Shown here one piece after another: positions 35,805 to 53,650 of a stretch of 64,000 bases of DNA. The stretch covers positions 62,001 to 126,000 of the forward strand of contig NZ_PDJI01000004.1 in the NCBI RefSeq assembly GCF_002563695.1, written 5' to 3'. Within the stretch, counting starts at the first letter, position 1, and the number at the start of each line of letters is the position of its first letter. The stretch comes from Georgenia soli (lineage in GTDB: Bacteria; Actinomycetota; Actinomycetes; Actinomycetales; Actinomycetaceae). The notes below the pieces were generated by a model. The model worked only from the letters and a program-made list of their open reading frames with translations, was not told where the DNA came from and did not search any database. Both the position numbers and the translations under genes were made by a program.

Positions 35805-36795
35805 CGCCTCTGCCACGCTCGCCGCGACCGAACGGCGCCCGGCGGGCCCCCGTCCCGGACTGCGGGTGGCTCTGCTGGGAGCCGCGGCCGCCCTCGTCGT
35901 CCTCGGGTTCCTCGTGGTCGGCGCCTTCGACGCGCTCGCCCTTCTCGTGCCCATGCGGGTCGAGCGCGTGGCGGCCATGGTGCTCGTCGGCGTCGCCATC
36001 GCCGTCTCCACGGTGCTGTTCCAGACCGTGACCGAGAACCGCATCCTCACGCCGTCGATCATGGGCTTCGACGCCCTGTACGCGCTGATCCAGACCTCCG
36101 CGGTGTTCTTCCTCGGGTCCGGGACGGTCAACGGCCTGGCGCCGCCGCTGCGCTTCGCGGTCGAGGTGGCGGCGATGCTCGTCTTCTCGTTCCTGATCTT
36201 CCGGTGGGTCTTCGGCGGCGCGCGGCGCAGCCTGTACCTGGTGGTGCTCGTCGGGATCGTCTTCGGCGTGCTGTTCCGCTCGCTGGCGACGTTCATGCAG
36301 CGGGTGATCGACCCGAACGAGTACCTCATCGTCCAGGACCGCCTCTTCGCCTCGTTCAACGCCGTCGACCCGACCCTCCTGGTCGTGTGCGCGGCCGTCG
36401 TGGCGGTCGCCTCGGCGTGGGTGTGGAGCCGCCGGCGCGAGCTCGACGTCCTCGCGCTCGGCCGGGCGAACGCGGTGACCCTGGGCCTGGAGCACCACCG
36501 CAGCACCATGGCCGTGCTGCTGGTGTGCGCGCTGCTCGTCTCCGTCTCCACCGCCCTGGTCGGGCCGATCACCTTCTTCGGCCTGCTGGTGGCGAACCTC
36601 GCCTACCTCGTGGCCGGGACCCACCGCCACGCGTACGTGCTGCCGGTGGCGTCGCTGCTCGCCGTCGTCACGCTCGTGGGCGGCCAGACCATCCTCGAGC
36701 ACGTGTTCGGCCTGGACACCGTGCTCAGCGTCATCGTCGAGTTCGTCGGAGGAATTGTGTTCATCATGCTGCTCGTGCGGGGAGGCCGCCGATGA
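35794..36795 (+). CDS. Iron-siderophore ABC transporter permease (FecCD family)
   Basis: A 333-residue second permease subunit with about nine hydrophobic helices. VERVAAMVLVGVAIAVSTVLFQTVTENRILTPSIMGFD (residues about 50-90) and VGPITFFGLLVANLAYLV (about 245-265) are the characteristic FecCD segments. It starts at GTG inside the preceding gene and overlaps the ATG of the ATPase gene, so all four products should be made in a fixed ratio. Confidence 0.93.
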   Translation: MLADASATLAATERRPAGPRPGLRVALLGAAAALVVLGFLVVGAFDALALLVPMRVERVAAMVLVGVAIAVSTVLFQTVTENRILTPSIMGFDALYALIQTSAVFFLGSGTVNGLAPPLRFAVEVAAMLVFSFLIFRWVFGGARRSLYLVVLVGIVFGVLFRSLATFMQRVIDPNEYLIVQDRLFASFNAVDPTLLVVCAAVVAVASAWVWSRRRELDVLALGRANAVTLGLEHHRSTMAVLLVCALLVSVSTALVGPITFFGLLVANLAYLVAGTHRHAYVLPVASLLAVVTLVGGQTILEHVFGLDTVLSVIVEFVGGIVFIMLLVRGGRR

Positions 36796-37550
36796 TCGTC
36801 ACCGAGAACCTCACCAAGAGCTACGGCTCCACCGTCGTCGTCGACGGTGTCGACCTCACGCTCACCCCGGGCGGCGTCACGTCCATCATCGGCGCCAACG
36901 GCGCCGGGAAGTCGACCGTGCTGTCGATGATCTCGCGCCTGCTCGAGATGGACGGCGGCACCGTGAGCATCGACGGCCTCGACGTCTCCCGCACGCCGAG
37001 CGCGGAGCTGGCCAAGCGCATGTCCATCCTGCGTCAGGACAACCACCTGGCCGTCCGGCTGACCGTCCAGGACCTCGTGGCGTTCGGCCGCTACCCGCAC
37101 TCCCGGGGCCGGCTGACCATCGAGGACCGGCGCCACATCGCCGCCGCGATGGACTACCTCGAGCTCGGGCCGTTCGCCTCGCGGTACCTCGACGAGCTCT
37201 CCGGCGGGCAGCGCCAGCGCGCCTTCGTGGCCATGGTGCTGTGCCAGGACACCGACTACGTCCTGCTCGACGAGCCGCTCAACAACCTCGACATGAAGCA
37301 CTCCGTGTCGATGATGAAGCTGCTGCGGCGTACCGCCGACGAGCTCGGCAAGACTGTGGTGGTCGTCGTCCACGACATCAACTTCGCCTCCTGCTACTCC
37401 GACCACATCGTGGCGATGAAGAACGGTCGCGTGCTGTGCCAGGGCAGCGCCGAGGAGGTCATCACCACCGAGCAGCTCCGTGCGGTCTACGACATGGACG
37501 TCGCCGTCGAGATCGTGGGCGGGCGGCGCATCGGCGTCTACTACGACTGA
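36792..37550 (+). CDS. Iron-siderophore ABC transporter ATP-binding protein
   Basis: A 252-residue ATPase energising the importer. It has Walker A GANGAGKS (residues 34-41), the Q-loop within MSILRQDNHLAV, the signature LSGGQ from residue 136, Walker B VLLDEP with Asp160 and Glu161, and the H-loop in VVHDINFASCYSDH. The YclP/VctC-like segment NNLDMKHSVSMMK favours catecholate siderophore transport. It is the last gene of the importer operon. Seventy bases of weak dyad symmetry follow before the Wadjet-like operon begins on the same strand. Confidence 0.95.
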   Translation: MIVTENLTKSYGSTVVVDGVDLTLTPGGVTSIIGANGAGKSTVLSMISRLLEMDGGTVSIDGLDVSRTPSAELAKRMSILRQDNHLAVRLTVQDLVAFGRYPHSRGRLTIEDRRHIAAAMDYLELGPFASRYLDELSGGQRQRAFVAMVLCQDTDYVLLDEPLNNLDMKHSVSMMKLLRRTADELGKTVVVVVHDINFASCYSDHIVAMKNGRVLCQGSAEEVITTEQLRAVYDMDVAVEIVGGRRIGVYYD

Positions 37551-37707: not shown

Positions 37708-39267
37708 GTGCGGGTGTCAGCTGTGAACGAGTCGGTGCAGGACGGCGGGACGACCTCGGCACGGCTGGATCTCTTCCGCTACCTCACCGCCGACCTGGCC
37801 GCGGACTACCGCGCCATCATGACGTTGTTCACCTCGACGTTGCTGGCCGACCTCTCCGCGTCCGAGGTGAGCGAGGCACTCGCCGAGCGGGGGACCGTCC
37901 TCTCCGTCGACGACGTCACCACCCGGTGCGAGCAGCTCGAGAGGTGGGGCAACCTCGTCCGCGGCATCCGCGACGCACGGGTGGCGACGGTCCAGGACTA
38001 CGTCCGTTCCCGCGCCCGGTACCAGGCCTCCAAGCTGGGGGTCCGCGTGCACCGCGAGGCCGAGGCGATCGTCGCCGCCGGGGACGGTGCGCGGGAGGTC
38101 GCCCGCGAGCTGCTCGGCGCCACCGCCGAGACCCTCGACCGCATCGTCGCCCGCATGACGGCGGCCAGCGACGGCCGCCCGGTGAGTGCCGAGGCACTCT
38201 CCGGCGACGTGACGACGGTCTTCAACAACCAGCGGCTCTTCTCCGACAGCGTGCGGGACTTCTACGCGTACGTGAACACCGTCCTCACGCGCTACGACCT
38301 CGCCGGCGAGGAGTACCAGCAGTTCAAGCGGCTGCTCCTCGACTACATCGACCTGCTCACGGCCGACGTCGCACGCCACGCCCCCGTCGTCGCCCGCCGC
38401 TTCACCGCGCTGGAGCCGCTGCTCGACGACGTCCTCGCCGCCATGGCCACGTTGCCCACGCTGGCGGACGCGAACACGGAGCGGCTGCCCGGACGCACCC
38501 GCGAGGACTGGGAGCACGTGCGCGGCTGGTACACCGGCGCCGACGGCCGTTCGGGCCCCGAGACGCTGCGGCTCGCCGCCGACCAGGCCCTCGGTCAGCT
38601 TCTCGCCAACACCAAGCGGATGCTGGCGTCCGCCGGCACCGGGGTGAGCCGGCGTGCCGACCTCCTCAAGCTCGCCTCGTGGTTCGACGACGCCGACGCC
38701 GACCAGGCGCACGCCCTCTACGCCGCAGCGTTCGGCGCCTATCCCGCTCGTCACCTGCTCGGCGGCCCCGAGGAGCCGGACCCTCGCGACGGCGCCACGA
38801 CCTCCTGGTGGGCCGCGACGCCCGTGGAGGTCCCGCTCAGCCTGCGCGAACGTGGTGACCGCGGCGCCCGGGGACGAACCTCGTCCGTCCCGGACCCGGG
38901 CCTGGACCGGGTGCGGCTGCTGGCGGAGGCCCAGAGCGAGGCCGACGCCCGGGCGGCCGCCGTCGGTGAGCTGGTCGCCGCCGGCCGGCTCGACGGCGCG
39001 CAGGTCAGCCCGGCCGCCCTCGGCCTGCTGCTGGGCCAGCTGACCCGTCTGCTGGCGCTCCACCCCCAGCTGGAGGCGACGGCCCGGGCCACGGACACCG
39101 ACCTCGGGCTGACTCTCACCGCCGCACCGGAGCCGACGGCGTCCACGACGCTGCGGACCACGGACGGAGATCTCACCGTCCACGGGCTCGTCCTGGAGGT
39201 CACCGCGGCCGGCGGCGCGGCCGACGGCGGCGCTGCCTCGCCCGAGCCGGCGGAGGTGCTCGCGTGA
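37708..39267 (+). CDS. jetA: DUF2397 / TIGR02677 family protein, JetA-like subunit of a type III Wadjet system
   Basis: A protein of about 519 residues. DUF2397 features are the opening RLDLFRYLTADLAADYRAIMTLF, a winged-helix-like region (residues about 45-85, ending CEQLERWGNLV), and the long helical centre TVFNNQRLFSDSVRDFYAYVNTVLTRYDL. In Wadjet complexes the JetA role is the kleisin-like subunit joining the JetC motor, related to MukF. GTG at 37708 is the outermost start, but GTG at 37714 has better spacing (nine bases) from AGGAGG. The stop overlaps the next gene by four bases. Codon use and GC content look like the surrounding genome. Confidence 0.85.
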   Translation: MRVSAVNESVQDGGTTSARLDLFRYLTADLAADYRAIMTLFTSTLLADLSASEVSEALAERGTVLSVDDVTTRCEQLERWGNLVRGIRDARVATVQDYVRSRARYQASKLGVRVHREAEAIVAAGDGAREVARELLGATAETLDRIVARMTAASDGRPVSAEALSGDVTTVFNNQRLFSDSVRDFYAYVNTVLTRYDLAGEEYQQFKRLLLDYIDLLTADVARHAPVVARRFTALEPLLDDVLAAMATLPTLADANTERLPGRTREDWEHVRGWYTGADGRSGPETLRLAADQALGQLLANTKRMLASAGTGVSRRADLLKLASWFDDADADQAHALYAAAFGAYPARHLLGGPEEPDPRDGATTSWWAATPVEVPLSLRERGDRGARGRTSSVPDPGLDRVRLLAEAQSEADARAAAVGELVAAGRLDGAQVSPAALGLLLGQLTRLLALHPQLEATARATDTDLGLTLTAAPEPTASTTLRTTDGDLTVHGLVLEVTAAGGAADGGAASPEPAEVLA

Positions 39268-40517
39268 GTGCGCACGGCACCGCCGAGCACGATGCCGCGG
39301 AGCGGCGCGAGGCCGCCCGGGCGCTGCTGCGTCACCCGGTGCTGACGAAGGCACGCCACGGGGAGGAGTTCGCGCTCGTCCGACGGCACGCGCCGGCGCT
39401 GCGGAGAATGTTCCCCGCGGTCCTGGGCTACCCGCTCGTCGTGGAGTCCTCGTTCGCCCGCCTCGTCAAGGACGCCCCGAGCGCCGACGCCCCGCCGCGT
39501 CCCGCGCAGCGCCGCGGCGGGCAGCCGTTCGCCCCGCGCACCTACGCCTACCTCGCCCTCGTGTGCGCGGCCCTGCTGCAGACCGCCGGCCGGGAGCAGG
39601 TGCTCCTCGGCACCCTGGTCGAGCAGGTCCGCGCCGACGCCGCGGTGGCGGGCATCGCCGTCGACGACTCGCTGACCGACCGGCGCCATCTCGTGCAGGC
39701 CATGGCGCTGCTCCTCGACCGGGGCGTGCTCAGCGAGACGGACGGCTCCGTCACCGCCTGGGGCGACCGCCAGGATGAGGCGCTGCTCGACGTCAACCGG
39801 ACGCTGCTCACCCACGTGCTCGCGCGACCACTGGGAGACGTGGCCACCCCGGAGGAGCTCCTGGCACGCGGAGAGCGCGCCGTCGCCGAGCAGCCTCGCC
39901 GGGCGCTGCGCCGCCGGCTCGTCGAGAACCCGCTCGTGCGCCGGGAGGACCTCACCGCGGAGGAGCAGCACGTCCTCTCCCGCGAGCGCGCCGACCTCAG
40001 CCGCACCCTGGGCGAGCACTTCGGCCTGACGCTCGAGGTCCGCCAGGAGGGTGCACTCGCCTACGACGTCGACGGCGAGCTCACCGACATCGCCTTCCCC
40101 GGCCAGGGCACCGTCGCGCACGTCGCGCTCCTGCTCGTCAACGCCCTCGTCGACGACCTGGACGGCGGTCCCGGCGTCGTCGCCGAGGTCGACGGTCGCA
40201 CCGTGCCGGGCCTCCTCGCTCCGTGGGCCGCGGTGTCGGACGCGGTGGACCTGCTCGTCGAGCAGTACGGCACCACGTTCGCGGAGGCGTTCGCCCGCGA
40301 CCCCGAGCACCTGCAGGCCGAGGCCGTGTCCCGGCTCGAGGACATGAGCCTGGCCCGGCGCACCGCCGAGGGGCTCGTGCTGCACCCGGCGTGCGCCCGC
40401 TACCAGCCCGAGCCGCAGCGCGCCCCGCGCCGGGCGTCCGTCCCCGCCGCCCGTGCGTCCGAGGACGCACCGGCGGAGACGCAGCAGGGCCTGTTCCCGC
40501 TCCAGGAGGACCGATGA
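39264..40517 (+). CDS. jetB: DUF2398 / TIGR02678 family protein, JetB-like subunit of a type III Wadjet system
   Basis: A 417-residue protein with a GTG start overlapping the DUF2397 stop. Conserved family segments are EFALVRRHAPALRRMFPAVLGYPLVVESSFARL near residues 33-65, TYAYLALVCAALLQTAGREQVLLG, and DRRHLVQAMALLLDRGVLSETDGS, a winged-helix pattern. It would correspond to the KITE-like (MukE-type) subunit. The last 40 residues are Pro/Ala/Arg-rich. The ATG of the next gene overlaps its stop, and the AGGAGG for that gene lies inside this coding region, so synthesis of the three proteins is coupled. Confidence 0.83.
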   Translation: MSAHGTAEHDAAERREAARALLRHPVLTKARHGEEFALVRRHAPALRRMFPAVLGYPLVVESSFARLVKDAPSADAPPRPAQRRGGQPFAPRTYAYLALVCAALLQTAGREQVLLGTLVEQVRADAAVAGIAVDDSLTDRRHLVQAMALLLDRGVLSETDGSVTAWGDRQDEALLDVNRTLLTHVLARPLGDVATPEELLARGERAVAEQPRRALRRRLVENPLVRREDLTAEEQHVLSRERADLSRTLGEHFGLTLEVRQEGALAYDVDGELTDIAFPGQGTVAHVALLLVNALVDDLDGGPGVVAEVDGRTVPGLLAPWAAVSDAVDLLVEQYGTTFAEAFARDPEHLQAEAVSRLEDMSLARRTAEGLVLHPACARYQPEPQRAPRRASVPAARASEDAPAETQQGLFPLQEDR

Positions 40518-43500
40518 GCACCACGACCACCGCGACAGCCGGGACCGAGCCGGAGGGCGCCGTCGACGTCGTCGCCGACGGCGCCACCGACCTCCTCCCG
40601 GAGGGCGGGGGCGCCGTCGTCGGGGAGCACGGCGTCACGCGCCGCCCTCACCGGTGGGGCCTGCACCGTGCAGGCATCGTCAACGTCTGGCACTACTGGG
40701 CGGAGACGTTCAGCTTCTCCGGCGGGCGGATGGTGCTGCGCGGGACCAACGGCTCGGGCAAGAGCCGGGCCCTGGAGATGCTCCTGCCCTTCCTCCTCGA
40801 CGCCGACCGGCGACGGATGGACTCCACCGGCTCCGGGAAGGTGCGTCTCGACGAGCTCATGAAGGTGGGGGCCGAGGGCCAGGGCAACCGCCTCGGGTAC
40901 CTCTGGGTCGAGCTCGCCCGCGACGGCGACGCCGGCCGTGAGCACCTCACGCTCGGCGCGCTGGTGCGCTGGTCGGCCAGCTCGGGGGAGGCGCGCGTCT
41001 GGTACTTCACCACCCCGCTGCGCGTGGGGCACGACCTCGAGCTCCTCGACGCCGCGCGCCAGCCGATGCCCCGTGAGCGCCTCGCCGAGCTCATCGGCGC
41101 CGAGCGCCTCACCGAGAACCCGGACACCCACCGCGAACGTGTCCGCAGCGCGGTCTTCGGCCTGACCGGGCCAGGCGCACGCGAGCGCTACGACGGCCTG
41201 CTGCAGCTTCTCCGCACCCTGCGCTCGCCCGACGTCGGCAACCGCATCGAGGAGGGCAACCTGCCACGGATCCTCTCCGAGGCGCTGCCCCCGCTGTCGG
41301 AGGAGACGCTCAACGACGCCGGAGGCCGGCTCGACGACCTGTCCGAGTCCCGCGAGTCCCAGCGCCGCCTCGCCGGCGCGCACGAGCACATCAGCACCTT
41401 TCTCGCCACCTACGGCCGTTACGCGGCCACGGAGCTGCGTGCCACGGCGGACAGGGCGGCCCGCACGGCCGACGCGGCGCGGGCCGCGGCCGAGGCTGCG
41501 GGCTCGGCGGCCGTCGCGCGTGACGAGCTCGCAGCCCGGACGGTGGAGGCCCGGACCGCCGTGGAACGGCTGGAGACCCGGGAGGGCGAGCTGGCGGCCA
41601 CTGCCGAAGGTCTCAAGGCGTCCGAGGCGTACCGCGCCGGCCAGGACCTCGCCCAGCGCGACCGCTACGTCCGGACGCTCGCGCAGCGGGCGCAGGAGAG
41701 GCTCGACGGCGCCGACGGCGCACGCAGCGAGGAGAAGGAGGCCGTCGCCGCGGTGGACGCCCTCGCCGCGGACGTCGTCGACGCCGCCCGGGAGACCGCC
41801 GGCGTCCTCGACGAGGCACGGGCCGGGCTGCGCGGCGCCCGCCTGGCGACGACGGCCCTTCCCGGCACGCTGGAGGCCCGCCTCGAGACGGTTGAGGGCT
41901 CCGCGGAACCGGTGCGCACCCTGCTCGAAGGTGACCCGCACCCTCAGCAGCGGCCGGAGGCCCAGCAGCTCCTGGTCACGCCGACCGACCTCGAGGACGC
42001 CGCCGTGCGTGCGCGCGAGGTCGCGACTGCGGCGCAGGCGCGGGCGGGCGAGGCGGGGAACAGGCTCCGGGGCGCCGTCGAGCTCGCGCGCGCCAGGACC
42101 GAGGCCGACCACGCCGGCACGGCCGCGGGTGAGGCCGACGAGCGACGGGCCGTGGACGAGACCGGGGCGGCCGAGCGGCGAGAGGACCGCGACGAGGCCG
42201 CCCGAGGGCTGGCGGACGCCTGGCGGGAGTGGGTCGCCCAGGACGCGACCACCGACCTGCTTGGCGACGTCGACTGGTCGGCCACCGCCGTCGGCCCCCT
42301 CCTGCTCGACGCAGACCTGCTCGCGGGCGACGCCCGCGTCGGCCGGGGCGGGGACGAGAACCCCCACGCGCTCCGGCTCGAGGAGCTCGACCGCGTGGCC
42401 GCCGAGGCCGCCGAGCCCGCGCGCGACCGGCTCGCCCGCACGGGTGCTGCCCTCGACGCCGCGGACCAGGCCGACGCGGTCCGGCGACGGGAGCTGGCGG
42501 ACGAGCAGCGAGCCCTCCGTGCCGCGAACGACCCGGAGCCGCCCGCCGCGCCCTGGGCGCGGGCGCTGCCCGAGGGGGCCGTGGCGCTGTGGCGTGCGGT
42601 GGACTTCGCGGACGGCCTGAGCGACACGGACCGGGCCGGCCTCGAGGCCGCGCTGCTCTCCGCCGGCCTGCTCGGCGCAGGCCTGACGGCAGACGGCGCG
42701 CTCGTCGCCGAGGACGGCCAGACCCTGCTGACGTCCGCCGCCCCGCCGGCTCAGCACCCGCTGCGGGCGGCTCTCGTACCGGACCCCACCGCCGGCGTGC
42801 CGGCGGCCGTCGTCACCGCCGTCCTGGCGCGCGTCGGCCTGGGCCGTGACACTCACACCACGTGGGTCGAGGTGGACGGCTCCTGGGGCAACGGGCCCCT
42901 GCGCGGGCGGTACACCGCTGACTCCGCCCGGCACATCGGGGCCGCGGCGCGAGCCGCGGCCCGCGCCGTGCGCCTGGCGCAGATCGACGACGAGCTGGCG
43001 GACCTCGACCGGCGGCAGACCGAGCGGGCCGCTGCCCGCGACCGGCTCGCGGCGGCGCGGTCCGCACTTACCGCGCACGTGCGGACCGCACCCGGCGGCG
43101 CGGCGCTGGCCGACGCCCGCACCCTCGCCGTCGCGGCAGCCCGCCAGGCGGCGCGCAGCCGGGCCGAGGCGGCCCGGCTGACGGAGCGAGCCGCAGAGCT
43201 GCACGTGGCGTGGAAGGCCCAGGAGACGACCCACCGCCAGCTCTGCGACCGGCACGGCCTGCCTCACGACCCGGACGAGCTGCGCGGCGTGCGTGACACC
43301 GCGAGGGCCGCCCAGGACGCGTGCCTGGCCGCCGCCGCCGCCCTGAGCTCTCTTGCGGGGGGCCGGGCCCGGCACGCCGAGGAGGTGTCGCGGCTCGCCA
43401 GGCACCGCGAACGCCGCTCCGAGGCCGAGCTCCGCGCCGAGGAGGCCTGGGCCGAGTGGCACCGCGAGGCAGCTGAGGTCGAGGCGCTCACCGACAGCCT

Positions 43501-44779
43501 CGGGCAGGAGGCGCGGGAGGTCCACCGCCGGCTGGCCGTGACCGAGGACGAGCAGCGGCGGGTCACCCGGGAGCTGCGTGACGCTCGGATGGCCGCCCAG
43601 CAGCTGGGCGAGCAGGAGGCCGTGGCCCGCCGGGACGCCGAGACCGCTGCGGACGCGGCTGCTGCGGCGGAGAGACAGCTCACCGGGGCGCTGGAGAGGT
43701 TGCGCCGGCAGGTGGCCCTTCCGGGGGTGCTGGCGGCCGCCGGTGGCGGGGAGCTCGACCTGACGGCGGACGGACCGGTCACGCCGGAGCTGGTCCGCGA
43801 CGCTGCCGAGGCGGTGCGGTCCGCCGTCGCCGGGAGCGGCACCGCCGACCTCAACGCGCTGCTACGCGCCCGGCAGAAGCTCGAGGCCGAGCTGCAGGGC
43901 GGTTTCGACGTCGTGCCCACCGTCGCCGAGGACGTCCACCTCGTCGAGCTCGTCGACGGCGCCGGCCGGCGTCCGGTGGCGGAGGCCGCCGCCGACCTGG
44001 GCGCGCGCGTGGAGCGGGCACGCGAGGCTCTCACGAGCCGGGAGCACGAGGTGTTCACCAACTTCGTCGTCGGCGGCGTGGGGGAGGAGCTGCGCCGGCG
44101 GCTGGCGCAGTCCGAGCAGCTCGTGTCCGCGATGAACGAGAGTCTGCGCAGCATCAGCACGAGCCACGGCATCGGGGTGCGGCTGGCATGGGTGCTGGAC
44201 GCGCCGGAGGGCAGCCGGGTCCACCGCATCAAGGAGCTCGTCCGGTCGGCCGCGGCCGTGCGCCCGGGCGAGCGCACCGACGAGCTGATCGGTCTCCTGC
44301 GCGAGCAGGTGGACGAGCAGTTCGCGCTCGACGAGACCGCCGGGTACGCCCAGCACCTCAAGAGCGCCCTCGACTACCGCGACTGGCACCACATGCGGGT
44401 GACCATCCTCGGCCCGGGCCCGAACGACCGGCGCGAGCTGCGGGGGCGCGCCAAGCTGTCGCAGGGCGAGACCCGCTTCGTCTCCTACGTCACGCTCTTC
44501 GCCGCCGCGGACGCGTACCTGTCCGGCCTCGGCGACACGGCGCTGCGCCTGGTCCTGCTGGACGACGCCTTCGCCAAGGTCGACGACCCCACCATCGGGG
44601 AGCTCATGGGCCTGCTCGTGCGTCTCGACCTCGACTTCTGCATGACGGCGCACAACCTGTGGGTCACCTACCCGCAGGTCCCCTGCGCCGACGAGTACGA
44701 GATCCTCCGCGCGGAGGGCACCCCCGCCGTCGCCGTCCACACGCACTGGGACGGCCGTTCCCGCCACCTGACGGCATGA
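40514..44779 (+). CDS. jetC: TIGR02680 family SMC-like ATPase, JetC-like motor of a type III Wadjet system
   Basis: A 1421-residue SMC/MukB-like protein. The N-terminal ATPase half has the P-loop GTNGSGKS at residues 77-84, preceded by FSFSGGRMVLRG. A long Ala/Arg/Glu-rich region (about 270-1180) is predicted to form the antiparallel coiled coil, interrupted near 680-850 by a less helical segment that may be the hinge. The C-terminal half holds the signature LSQGE at 1315-1319 and the Walker B end LVLLDDAF with Asp1350-Asp1351. Such a motor extrudes DNA loops in Wadjet systems so that the partner nuclease can recognise small circular DNA. No jetD follows; a hairpin and a convergent trehalose operon come next. 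Confidence 0.88.
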   Translation: MSTTTTATAGTEPEGAVDVVADGATDLLPEGGGAVVGEHGVTRRPHRWGLHRAGIVNVWHYWAETFSFSGGRMVLRGTNGSGKSRALEMLLPFLLDADRRRMDSTGSGKVRLDELMKVGAEGQGNRLGYLWVELARDGDAGREHLTLGALVRWSASSGEARVWYFTTPLRVGHDLELLDAARQPMPRERLAELIGAERLTENPDTHRERVRSAVFGLTGPGARERYDGLLQLLRTLRSPDVGNRIEEGNLPRILSEALPPLSEETLNDAGGRLDDLSESRESQRRLAGAHEHISTFLATYGRYAATELRATADRAARTADAARAAAEAAGSAAVARDELAARTVEARTAVERLETREGELAATAEGLKASEAYRAGQDLAQRDRYVRTLAQRAQERLDGADGARSEEKEAVAAVDALAADVVDAARETAGVLDEARAGLRGARLATTALPGTLEARLETVEGSAEPVRTLLEGDPHPQQRPEAQQLLVTPTDLEDAAVRAREVATAAQARAGEAGNRLRGAVELARARTEADHAGTAAGEADERRAVDETGAAERREDRDEAARGLADAWREWVAQDATTDLLGDVDWSATAVGPLLLDADLLAGDARVGRGGDENPHALRLEELDRVAAEAAEPARDRLARTGAALDAADQADAVRRRELADEQRALRAANDPEPPAAPWARALPEGAVALWRAVDFADGLSDTDRAGLEAALLSAGLLGAGLTADGALVAEDGQTLLTSAAPPAQHPLRAALVPDPTAGVPAAVVTAVLARVGLGRDTHTTWVEVDGSWGNGPLRGRYTADSARHIGAAARAAARAVRLAQIDDELADLDRRQTERAAARDRLAAARSALTAHVRTAPGGAALADARTLAVAAARQAARSRAEAARLTERAAELHVAWKAQETTHRQLCDRHGLPHDPDELRGVRDTARAAQDACLAAAAALSSLAGGRARHAEEVSRLARHRERRSEAELRAEEAWAEWHREAAEVEALTDSLGQEAREVHRRLAVTEDEQRRVTRELRDARMAAQQLGEQEAVARRDAETAADAAAAAERQLTGALERLRRQVALPGVLAAAGGGELDLTADGPVTPELVRDAAEAVRSAVAGSGTADLNALLRARQKLEAELQGGFDVVPTVAEDVHLVELVDGAGRRPVAEAAADLGARVERAREALTSREHEVFTNFVVGGVGEELRRRLAQSEQLVSAMNESLRSISTSHGIGVRLAWVLDAPEGSRVHRIKELVRSAAAVRPGERTDELIGLLREQVDEQFALDETAGYAQHLKSALDYRDWHHMRVTILGPGPNDRRELRGRAKLSQGETRFVSYVTLFAAADAYLSGLGDTALRLVLLDDAFAKVDDPTIGELMGLLVRLDLDFCMTAHNLWVTYPQVPCADEYEILRAEGTPAVAVHTHWDGRSRHLTA

Positions 44780-44782
44780 CAC

Positions 44783-44811
44783 GACCCGGGGGCGTGGTGC
44801 GCCCCCGGGTC
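44783..44811. terminator. Bidirectional terminator between jetC and treZ
   Basis: GACCCGGGGGCG (44783-44794) pairs perfectly with 44800-44811 around TGGTG. It fills most of the 39-base gap between the two convergent stop codons, so it probably ends transcripts from both sides. Confidence 0.7.
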
Positions 44812-44818
44812 CGCGCTG

Positions 44819-52158: not shown

Positions 52159-52164
52159 TGCCGG

Positions 52165-52236
52165 TGGGCGATACTGGGTTCGAACCAGTGACCTCCTCGG
52201 TGTGAACGAGGCGCTCTACCACTGAGCCAATCGCCC
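52165..52236 (-). tRNA. tRNA-Val (anticodon CAC)
   Basis: A 72-base cloverleaf on the minus strand: acceptor GGGCGAT/ATCGCCC, D-arm with GGCTCAGTGGTAGAGC, anticodon stem CCTCG/CGAGG enclosing TTCACAC (anticodon CAC, reading GUG), and the T-loop GGTTCGAACC. The discriminator is A; CCA is not encoded. The acceptor and T-arm match the tRNA-Val(GAC) at 53573, indicating a duplicated gene pair. Confidence 0.95.
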
Positions 52237-53377: not shown

Positions 53378-53450
53378 GCGGATGTGGCTCAGTTGGTAGA
53401 GCATCACCTTGCCAAGGTGAGGGTCGCGGGTTCGAGTCCCGTCATCCGCT
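53378..53450 (+). tRNA. tRNA-Gly (anticodon GCC)
   Basis: A 73-base cloverleaf: acceptor GCGGATG/CATCCGC, D-arm GGCTCAGTTGGTAGAGC, anticodon stem TCACC/GGTGA with loop TTGCCAA (anticodon GCC, reading GGC/GGU), and T-loop GGTTCGAGTCC. The discriminator is T and no CCA is encoded. First gene of a three-tRNA cluster. Confidence 0.96.
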
Positions 53451-53483
53451 CGGAGGCACCACCACCCGGTGGGCATCCCTCAG

Positions 53484-53554
53484 GGTGGCGTGGCCGAGAG
53501 GCGAGGCAGCGGCCTGCAAAGCCGTATACACGGGTTCGAATCCCGTCGCCACCT
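53484..53554 (+). tRNA. tRNA-Cys (anticodon GCA)
   Basis: A 71-base cloverleaf: acceptor GGTGGCG/CGCCACC, anticodon stem CGGC/GCCG with loop CTGCAAA (anticodon GCA, reading UGC/UGU), T-loop GGTTCGAATCC and the discriminator U that cysteinyl-tRNA synthetase requires. It starts 33 bases after tRNA-Gly. Confidence 0.96.
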
Positions 53555-53572
53555 CTCTGCGGTGCACGACCT

Positions 53573-53644
53573 GGGCGATTGGCGCAGCGGTAGCGCGCTT
53601 CCCTGACACGGAAGAGGTCACTGGTTCGATCCCAGTATCGCCCA
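53573..53644 (+). tRNA. tRNA-Val (anticodon GAC)
   Basis: A 72-base cloverleaf: acceptor GGGCGAT/ATCGCCC, anticodon stem CTTCC/GGAAG with loop CTGACAC (anticodon GAC, reading GUC/GUU), T-loop GGTTCGATCC, discriminator A. It ends the cluster; the acceptor stem is identical to that of tRNA-Val(CAC) at 52165. Confidence 0.96.
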
Positions 53645-53650
53645 CCGAAC

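What the first reader, a model, noticed from the sequence alone, without database searches (positions are those of the whole stretch)
37708..44818. Type III Wadjet-like JetABC cassette without an adjacent jetD nuclease gene
Seen: DUF2397, DUF2398 and a TIGR02680 SMC-like ATPase overlap by four bases each, with their own promoter-like hexamer. Directly after jetC there is a perfect hairpin and then the convergent treZ; the gap is 39 bases, and I find no DUF3323/DUF2399 (TIGR02679) gene anywhere in the window. Established: Wadjet systems restrict small circular DNA through the JetABC loop-extruding complex plus the Toprim-like nuclease JetD, and type III cassettes normally encode all four genes together. 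Inference: either jetD was deleted, or it is supplied from another locus, or this JetABC works with a different effector or as a housekeeping SMC complex. JetC keeps Walker A, signature and Walker B, so the motor does not look decayed.
Basis: partly seen in the sequence, partly recalled or inferred. Interest (0 to 1): 0.78.

Follow-up and report, generated by a model that had tools for sequence, protein, structure and literature searches.

The report
Plasmid-cutting machine missing its cutter
Several Georgenia bacteria keep three well-preserved genes of a DNA-looping machine that normally destroys plasmids, but lack the fourth gene that does the cutting, which suggests that the machine now does something other than cut.

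Summary
The three genes are real and are jetA, jetB and jetC of a Wadjet system, but of type II (nearest solved relative: Neobacillus vireti Wadjet-II), not type III. No jetD lies beside them, in the window, or in the rest of the 99.6% complete genome by three type II JetD profiles and one type I profile. The main type II profile found jetD in 23 of 25 order-level genomes with this JetC family; the two without are this genome and one truncated cassette. Orphan jetABC is no one-genome accident: four of nine held Georgenia genomes carry it between fepC and treZ, with 18 to 48 bases after jetC and no conserved extra gene; two others have that site without jetABC. The orphan JetCs form one clade among jetD-bearing systems, so loss of jetD is the simplest history. 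ATPase motifs are intact and dN/dS (0.07 to 0.30) is about as low as in flanking genes and in jetD-bearing Georgenia Wadjets. Best reading: a nuclease-free type II SMC motor kept by selection, parallel to MksBEF, the jetD-less type I relative. What it does, whether an unrecognised effector helps, and whether the jetD-less clade reaches beyond Georgenia remain open.

The parts
37708..39267 (+). jetA: kleisin subunit, DUF2397/TIGR02677, 519 aa (a database copy has 517 aa, so the start may be 37714)
   Evidence: (375.6 bits, cut-off 28.5); AlphaFold model's best PDB match is 9qe0_E, N. vireti Wadjet-II
39264..40517 (+). jetB: KITE subunit, DUF2398/TIGR02678, 417 aa
   Evidence: (302.6 bits); PDB 9qe0_D E 1.6e-8
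40514..44779 (+). jetC: SMC ATPase, TIGR02680, 1421 aa, with intact Walker A, signature and Walker B
   Evidence: (715.6 bits, cut-off 462.85); PDB 9qe0_A E 1.6e-55
44776..44779 (+). ATGA at the jetC stop, possible vestige of the jetC/jetD overlap seen in relatives
   Evidence: jetC ends in ATGA in 2 of 4 orphan species; 4-base jetC/jetD overlap in five of six plasmid relatives (not in 59); A is 2.7% of third positions in jetC. Post hoc, weak.
44780..44818 (.). 39-base jetC-treZ gap with a 12-bp perfect hairpin; the place where jetD sits in the plasmid relatives
   Evidence: sister gaps 40, 18 and 48 bases, counted on the sequences
36204..37550 (+). upstream boundary: FepC-like ABC ATPase (longest ORF; the part conserved in sisters begins near 36783), after two FecCD permease genes and a binding-protein gene

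Best explanation
A type II Wadjet cassette lost its nuclease gene jetD in an ancestor of part of Georgenia, and the remaining JetABC was kept by natural selection as a nuclease-free, ATP-driven SMC complex. Shown: the genes, the absence of known-type jetD, the shared site, the place of the orphan clade among jetD-bearing systems, purifying selection, intact ATPase motifs. Inferred: the direction of change (loss, by parsimony), that JetABC still binds and extrudes DNA, and that without JetD it folds, segregates or holds DNA (chromosome, or plasmids without cutting them), as MksBEF does for the chromosome in Pseudomonas aeruginosa.
For: jetD absent: G000 has no hit to TIGR02679, PF09664, PF11796 or PF09983. 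TIGR02679 rang in 23 of the 25 order genomes with TIGR02680 at E<=1e-30 (297 searched in each); PF09983 rang in C. glutamicum. Shared: four of 9 genus genomes carry jetABC beside treZ with 18-48 bases after jetC. G376 has fepC and treZ 4 bases apart and G375 has one 141-aa open frame between them. Derived: the four orphan JetCs form one clade (99/99) among jetD-bearing rows. Six of 6 plasmid relatives, one of them a broken cassette, have jetD after jetC. In Actinokineospora sp. G85, whose JetA falls in the same JetA group, JetB ends in about 60 residues of a JetD C-terminus, which looks like a deletion scar. Selection: dN/dS jetA 0.13-0.30, jetB 0.07-0.25, jetC 0.21-0.26, against treZ 0.24-0.32, fepC 0.11-0.40, and jetD-bearing Georgenia jetC 0.19 and 0.30. 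Only 3 of 84 JetC columns conserved in jetD-bearing rows are changed in all four orphans; 0-14 in 11 jetD-bearing groups. [quoted passage not shown]
Against: No function was measured. JetC keeps the same conserved columns as jetD-bearing systems, so nothing in the sequence shows a new role; this fits equally with an unknown effector in trans. MksBEF is type I-like (recalled), so the parallel is by analogy. The other jetD-less case in the order surveys, G140, is truncated, so jetD loss can be a step of decay. PF09664 and PF11796 had no ringing control in their own calls (9, 10). Whether this genome has Smc-ScpAB was not checked.
Confidence: 0.6

Rival explanations
1. JetABC works with an unrecognised nuclease or other effector encoded elsewhere, so plasmid defence persists as a split system.
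For: Purifying selection as strong as in complete Georgenia systems and JetC columns largely unchanged fit an unchanged job.
Against: No type I or II JetD found in the genome. No gene is conserved beside jetABC: between fepC and jetA SYP-B2076 has an M15 peptidase gene and G. thermotolerans an MFS gene, both on the other strand, while the window (157 bases) and G. ruanii (about 105 bases) have no room there.
Confidence: 0.2
2. JetABC alone still restrains plasmids by extruding and compacting them, lowering copy number or segregation without cutting.
For: The sensor and motor are intact. Recalled, not tested: SMC complexes can restrain extrachromosomal DNA without a nuclease.
Against: [quoted passage not shown] subtilis.
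Confidence: 0.12
3. A recently broken system on its way to decay.
For: G140, the other jetD-less case in the order surveys, is truncated in jetC; Actinokineospora sp. G85 carries what looks like a deletion scar.
Against: Three complete jetABC sets and one split by a contig break, no internal stops, dN/dS far below 1 with dS up to 0.53.
Confidence: 0.04
4. This branch of Wadjet-II never had JetD; the nuclease was added to other branches.
For: 0 of 31 members of the JetA group holding Georgenia show a JetD hit on a contig of equal length, against 14 of 89 other listed rows; the trees are rooted at the midpoint only.
Against: The orphan JetCs lie inside jetD-bearing rows, and a genome of that same JetA group carries a JetD tail fused to JetB.
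Confidence: 0.04

Closest known systems
Wadjet type II JetABCD (Neobacillus vireti nvJET; PDB 9qe0, 9qe1)
   Same: JetA, JetB and JetC match by sequence and the JetA model by Foldseek (E 1.5e-13, but TM only 0.25, so the overall fit is loose)
   Different: No JetD gene found beside it or in the genome; nvJET cleaves circular DNA (PMC12647877, passages)
Streptomyces sp. BB1-1-1 plasmid Wadjet-II (NZ_CP134205.1, L140)
   Same: Best plasmid hit: JetA 56% over 80%, JetC 46%; same A-B-C order, B/C overlap of 4 bases
   Different: TIGR02679 jetD overlaps the end of jetC by 4 bases
MksBEF of Pseudomonas aeruginosa
   Same: SMC trio without the nuclease; [quoted passage not shown]
   Different: Type I-like proteins (recalled); here type II. 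The window's JetC matches the one listed JetC1 model at only 29 bits. P. aeruginosa MksBEF itself was not compared
jetD-less Wadjet I of Stenotrophomonas maltophilia
   Same: jetABC conserved (over 95% identity between strains) without jetD (PMC11680222, passages)
   Different: Type I; within one species; the authors call it probably inactive
Complete Wadjet-II of other Georgenia (second locus of G374; G376, G076, G052)
   Same: Same four families, same genus
   Different: jetD present; JetC only 25-28% identical to the window's JetC; other sites

Membership tests
Wadjet type II (complete JetABCD) | JetA DUF2397 kleisin | tested here: met
   PF09660 375.6 bits, TIGR02677 over cut-off, PADLOC JetA2
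Wadjet type II (complete JetABCD) | JetB DUF2398 | tested here: met
   PF09661 302.6 bits, TIGR02678 over cut-off, JetB2
Wadjet type II (complete JetABCD) | JetC SMC ATPase with intact motifs | tested here: met
   TIGR02680 715.6 bits; Walker A, LSQGE, Walker B
Wadjet type II (complete JetABCD) | JetD Toprim nuclease gene | tested here: not met
   No hit in own genome with TIGR02679, PF09664, PF11796; TIGR02679 controls; local profile. PF09664 and PF11796 had no ringing control in their own calls
Wadjet type II (complete JetABCD) | Restriction of small circular DNA | not testable with these tools
   needs a bench test
Wadjet type III | Type III subunits | tested here: inconclusive
   PADLOC gives only Jet '2' and, weakly, '1' models and the nearest structure is Wadjet-II, which speaks against type III; no profile labelled type III was seen or tested
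MksBEF (nuclease-free SMC complex) | SMC, kleisin and KITE trio without nuclease gene | tested here: met
MksBEF (nuclease-free SMC complex) | Type I-like Mks/Jet1 sequence families | tested here: not met
   JetC1 29.2 bits against JetC2 1100.6 bits; JetB1 14.6 against JetB2 376.3; no JetA1 model listed
MksBEF (nuclease-free SMC complex) | Role in chromosome organisation | not testable with these tools
   needs knockout and chromosome conformation capture

The most novel reading that the evidence does not exclude
Wadjet-II has, independently of the MksBEF line, given rise to a nuclease-free SMC complex kept for a cellular job, and this jetD-less clade may reach beyond Georgenia into Amycolatopsis and Actinokineospora relatives: a second natural case of a plasmid-cutting SMC system turned into a non-cutting one.
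Probability: 0.35. Interest if true: 0.7.

Novelty: new variant of a known kind. Interest (0 to 1): 0.55.

Why it matters
How defence SMC complexes and chromosome-organising SMC complexes turn into each other is unresolved; PMC10586767 (section 7 read) speculates that MukBEF and MksBEF came from Wadjet. A type II example within one genus, with complete cassettes, jetD-less cassettes and the site without jetABC in sister species, would let such a conversion be tested directly. It also warns that JetABC hits alone should not be counted as working plasmid defence.

Tried and rejected
Type III label: not supported. Trans-encoded known-type JetD: not found. jetD placed before jetA: this order exists in G239, but in the window fepC ends 157 bases upstream of jetA. 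Hidden jetD remnant after jetC or before jetA: tblastn gave only chance-level hits, best E 0.34. A conserved alternative effector next to jetABC: none seen. G140 as a second intact orphan: rejected, its jetC match stops near residue 694 and no second half is found in the fetched 19 kb. First JetC tree had 12 loci on the wrong strand and is discarded; one search replaces it. In one search the SYP-B2076 treZ was out of frame; one search replaces those rows. JetA relatives in viral contigs: none confirmed. An attempt to see whether Amycolatopsis and Actinokineospora relatives have jetD gave only a biased hint: 120 of 534 JetA hits and 120 of 710 JetD hits were listed, and the JetD query came from outside that group. 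The JetA model is middling (pLDDT 73.9, pTM 0.47). The column comparison left out four rows (G017, G252, G146 as outliers, G140 as a fragment). Paper searches showed no jetD-less type II Wadjet in the rows listed (all matches listed in 19, 40, 41, 48, 91, 92; 15 of 43 in 35; 10 of 67 in 45); only open-licence PubMed Central papers are searchable here, so a report elsewhere is not excluded. Papers seen as passages only: PMC10123090, PMC9252829, PMC10952713, PMC12287153, PMC12647877, PMC10482375, PMC10512200, PMC11680222; PMC10586767 as passages and one section.
Full report
What is there. The window holds jetA (37708-39267), jetB (39264-40517) and jetC (40514-44779) on the + strand, each overlapping the next by four bases. 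They match DUF2397/TIGR02677, DUF2398/TIGR02678 and TIGR02680 above the curated cut-offs (the other listed families are weak). PADLOC's best models for all three are the Jet '2' models. By sequence the PDB match of all three is 9qe0/9qe1 (for JetA a 113-residue uncharacterised protein also came up, at E 0.075). The JetA model's best Foldseek match is 9qe0_E, titled Neobacillus vireti Wadjet-II JetABC dimer (E 1.5e-13, TM 0.25, so a loose global fit). PMC12647877 (passages) also calls nvJET Wadjet-II.

No jetD. Downstream, 39 bases separate the jetC stop from the convergent treZ. Upstream, a FepC-like gene ends 157 bases before jetA. The window's genome (G000, 4.27 Mb, 99.57% complete, 4 contigs) has no hit at E<=0.001 to TIGR02679, PF09664 or PF11796, nor to the type I family PF09983 (JetD_C), which rang in the C. 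glutamicum control. In some searches no control genome rang, so I made a positive control for TIGR02679: of 297 genomes of the order, 25 have TIGR02680 at E<=1e-30, and 23 of these have TIGR02679 at E<=0.001 (also 297 genomes, same handles). The two without are G000 and G140. A PADLOC JetC2 survey of 396 order genomes gave 27 carriers, the same 25 plus G384 and G385; those two have jetD after jetC. So 25 of 27 carriers have a jetD. In G239 jetD comes before jetA and jetB, with jetC on another contig. G140 is a truncated cassette: its jetC match ends near residue 694 and no second half follows in the 19 kb fetched. A local JetD profile of 38 sequences found 5 of 5 held-out JetDs (130 to 345 bits) and nothing in the window or in loci L001 to L004.

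It is shared by several species. A scan of genome contigs confirmed four loci from three named species: Georgenia ruanii, G. sp. SYP-B2076 and G. thermotolerans, the last split over two contigs. All have jetABC between fepC and treZ. By equal contig lengths I take these to be G374, G022 and G377 of the genus search (an inference). Of 9 genus genomes, four carry the orphan set (G000, G022, G374, G377), four carry a complete jetABCD elsewhere (G374 again, G376, G076, G052), and two have no JetC hit at E<=1e-20 (G375, G094). The gaps from jetC to treZ are 39, 40, 18 and 48 bases, counted on the sequences. In G376 fepC and treZ lie four bases apart, and in G375 one 141-aa open frame of unknown function lies between them, so the site exists without jetABC. 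In the other three genomes the surroundings differ: no fepC hit beside treZ in the stretches fetched from G076 and G052, and only a 45% identical ABC gene about 1.2 kb away in G094. Between fepC and jetA, SYP-B2076 has an M15 peptidase gene and G. thermotolerans an MFS gene, both on the opposite strand; the window and G. ruanii have gaps of 157 and about 105 bases. No partner gene is conserved. Database proteins add JetA or JetB relatives named Georgenia daeguensis, sp. AZ-5 and sp. SUBG003, whose context was not seen.

History. In a maximum-likelihood tree of 29 JetCs the four orphans form one clade (99/99) whose nearest row is the G140 fragment, followed by jetD-bearing rows. In a tree of 20 chosen rows that adds four jetD-bearing Streptomyces plasmid JetCs, the orphans, G140 and Streptomyces sp. 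BB1-1-1 form a group (100/100) among jetD-bearing rows. Both trees are midpoint-rooted for drawing, so the direction rests on parsimony. Six of 6 plasmid records matching JetA at E<=1e-20, all Streptomyces, have jetD after jetC; five show a 4-base overlap, and one of these, S. dangxiongensis, is a broken cassette with jetC and jetD in pieces. Two of four orphan jetC genes still end in ATGA, as if a coupled start codon followed; A is 2.7% of third positions in jetC. This was noticed after the fact and is weak. In a FastTree of 120 JetAs plus three, Georgenia falls in a 31-member group (support 0.987) with Actinokineospora, Amycolatopsis and others. The genome of one of these, Actinokineospora sp. 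G85, has a JetB ending in about 60 residues of a JetD C-terminus (PF09664 27 bits over a cut-off of 23.4; 48% identity to a Streptomyces JetD). That looks like a deletion that removed jetC and most of jetD, so jetD was probably once there.

Selection. Pairwise Nei-Gojobori dN/dS among the four orphan sets is 0.13-0.30 for jetA, 0.07-0.25 for jetB and 0.21-0.26 for whole jetC in three species (halves in four species 0.11-0.28). For the flanks it is 0.24-0.32 (treZ) and 0.11-0.40 (fepC). For jetD-bearing Georgenia pairs it is 0.19 and 0.30 (jetC), 0.15 and 0.16 (jetA) and 0.20 and 0.21 (jetD). dS reaches 0.53 in jet genes and is similar in the flanks (0.12-0.63), so the genes have probably been there as long as their neighbours. 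Walker A, signature and Walker B motifs are present in all four, the G. thermotolerans ones in two contig pieces. Of 84 JetC columns at least 95% conserved in the jetD-bearing rows used, 3 are changed in all four orphans; for 11 jetD-bearing comparison groups the number is 0 to 14 (four rows left out beforehand). So there is no sign of decay, and equally no sign of a changed motor.

How it most likely works. From work on type I (PMC10586767, passages and section 7): JetABC is a dimeric SMC motor thought to extrude loops and sense circular DNA, and JetD is the nuclease; all four subunits were required for plasmid suppression in B. subtilis. Without JetD the likely remaining activity is extrusion or holding of DNA. 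The review says that P. [quoted passage not shown] PMC11680222 (passages) reports a conserved jetD-less Wadjet I in Stenotrophomonas maltophilia, taken there as probably inactive. The Georgenia set is the type II counterpart, and the selection data argue against inactivity here. The step from 'kept by selection' to 'acts on the chromosome' is inference. An unknown effector in trans remains the main rival.

How far it reaches. Of the 120 listed JetA hits, 0 of 31 in the Georgenia group and 14 of 89 others share a contig length with one of the 120 listed JetD hits (Fisher p 0.02; without the six Georgenia-like rows 0 of 25, p 0.04). This is biased: both lists are truncated, the JetD query came from outside the group, and equal contig length is only a proxy. 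It is a lead for a wider jetD-less clade, not a result.

Verdict. It is a new variant (jetD-less Wadjet type II) of a known kind.

Noticed in passing
G. ruanii (G374): L099 and L109: One genome holds both the orphan jetABC and a complete, distant jetABCD-II (JetC 28% identical to the window's), a natural side-by-side case.
   Followed up: partly
P0170 (Actinokineospora sp. G85): JetB fused to the C-terminal tail of a JetD: looks like a deletion scar that removed jetC and most of jetD.
   Followed up: partly
L102 (G140): Decayed Wadjet-II: JetC match truncated near residue 694, JetB match interrupted, no TIGR02679 hit in the genome.
   Followed up: partly
L147 (G239:C295): Wadjet-II with jetD first (D-A-B, jetC on another contig), a different gene order from the usual A-B-C-D.
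   Followed up: partly
window 44783-44811: 12-bp perfect G+C-rich hairpin between the convergent jetC and treZ, z -4.3, without a T-tail; sister junctions do not stand out from shuffles.
   Followed up: partly
fepC-treZ interval in L002, L003, L103, L106: A small variable site: different extra genes in different Georgenia, or four bases only in G376.
   Followed up: partly
L141 (Streptomyces dangxiongensis plasmid): A broken Wadjet-II cassette, with jetC and jetD annotated in pieces.
   Followed up: no
window 53378-53646: tRNA-Gly, tRNA-Cys and tRNA-Val cluster, with another tRNA-Val at 52163-52236 on the other strand.
   Followed up: no
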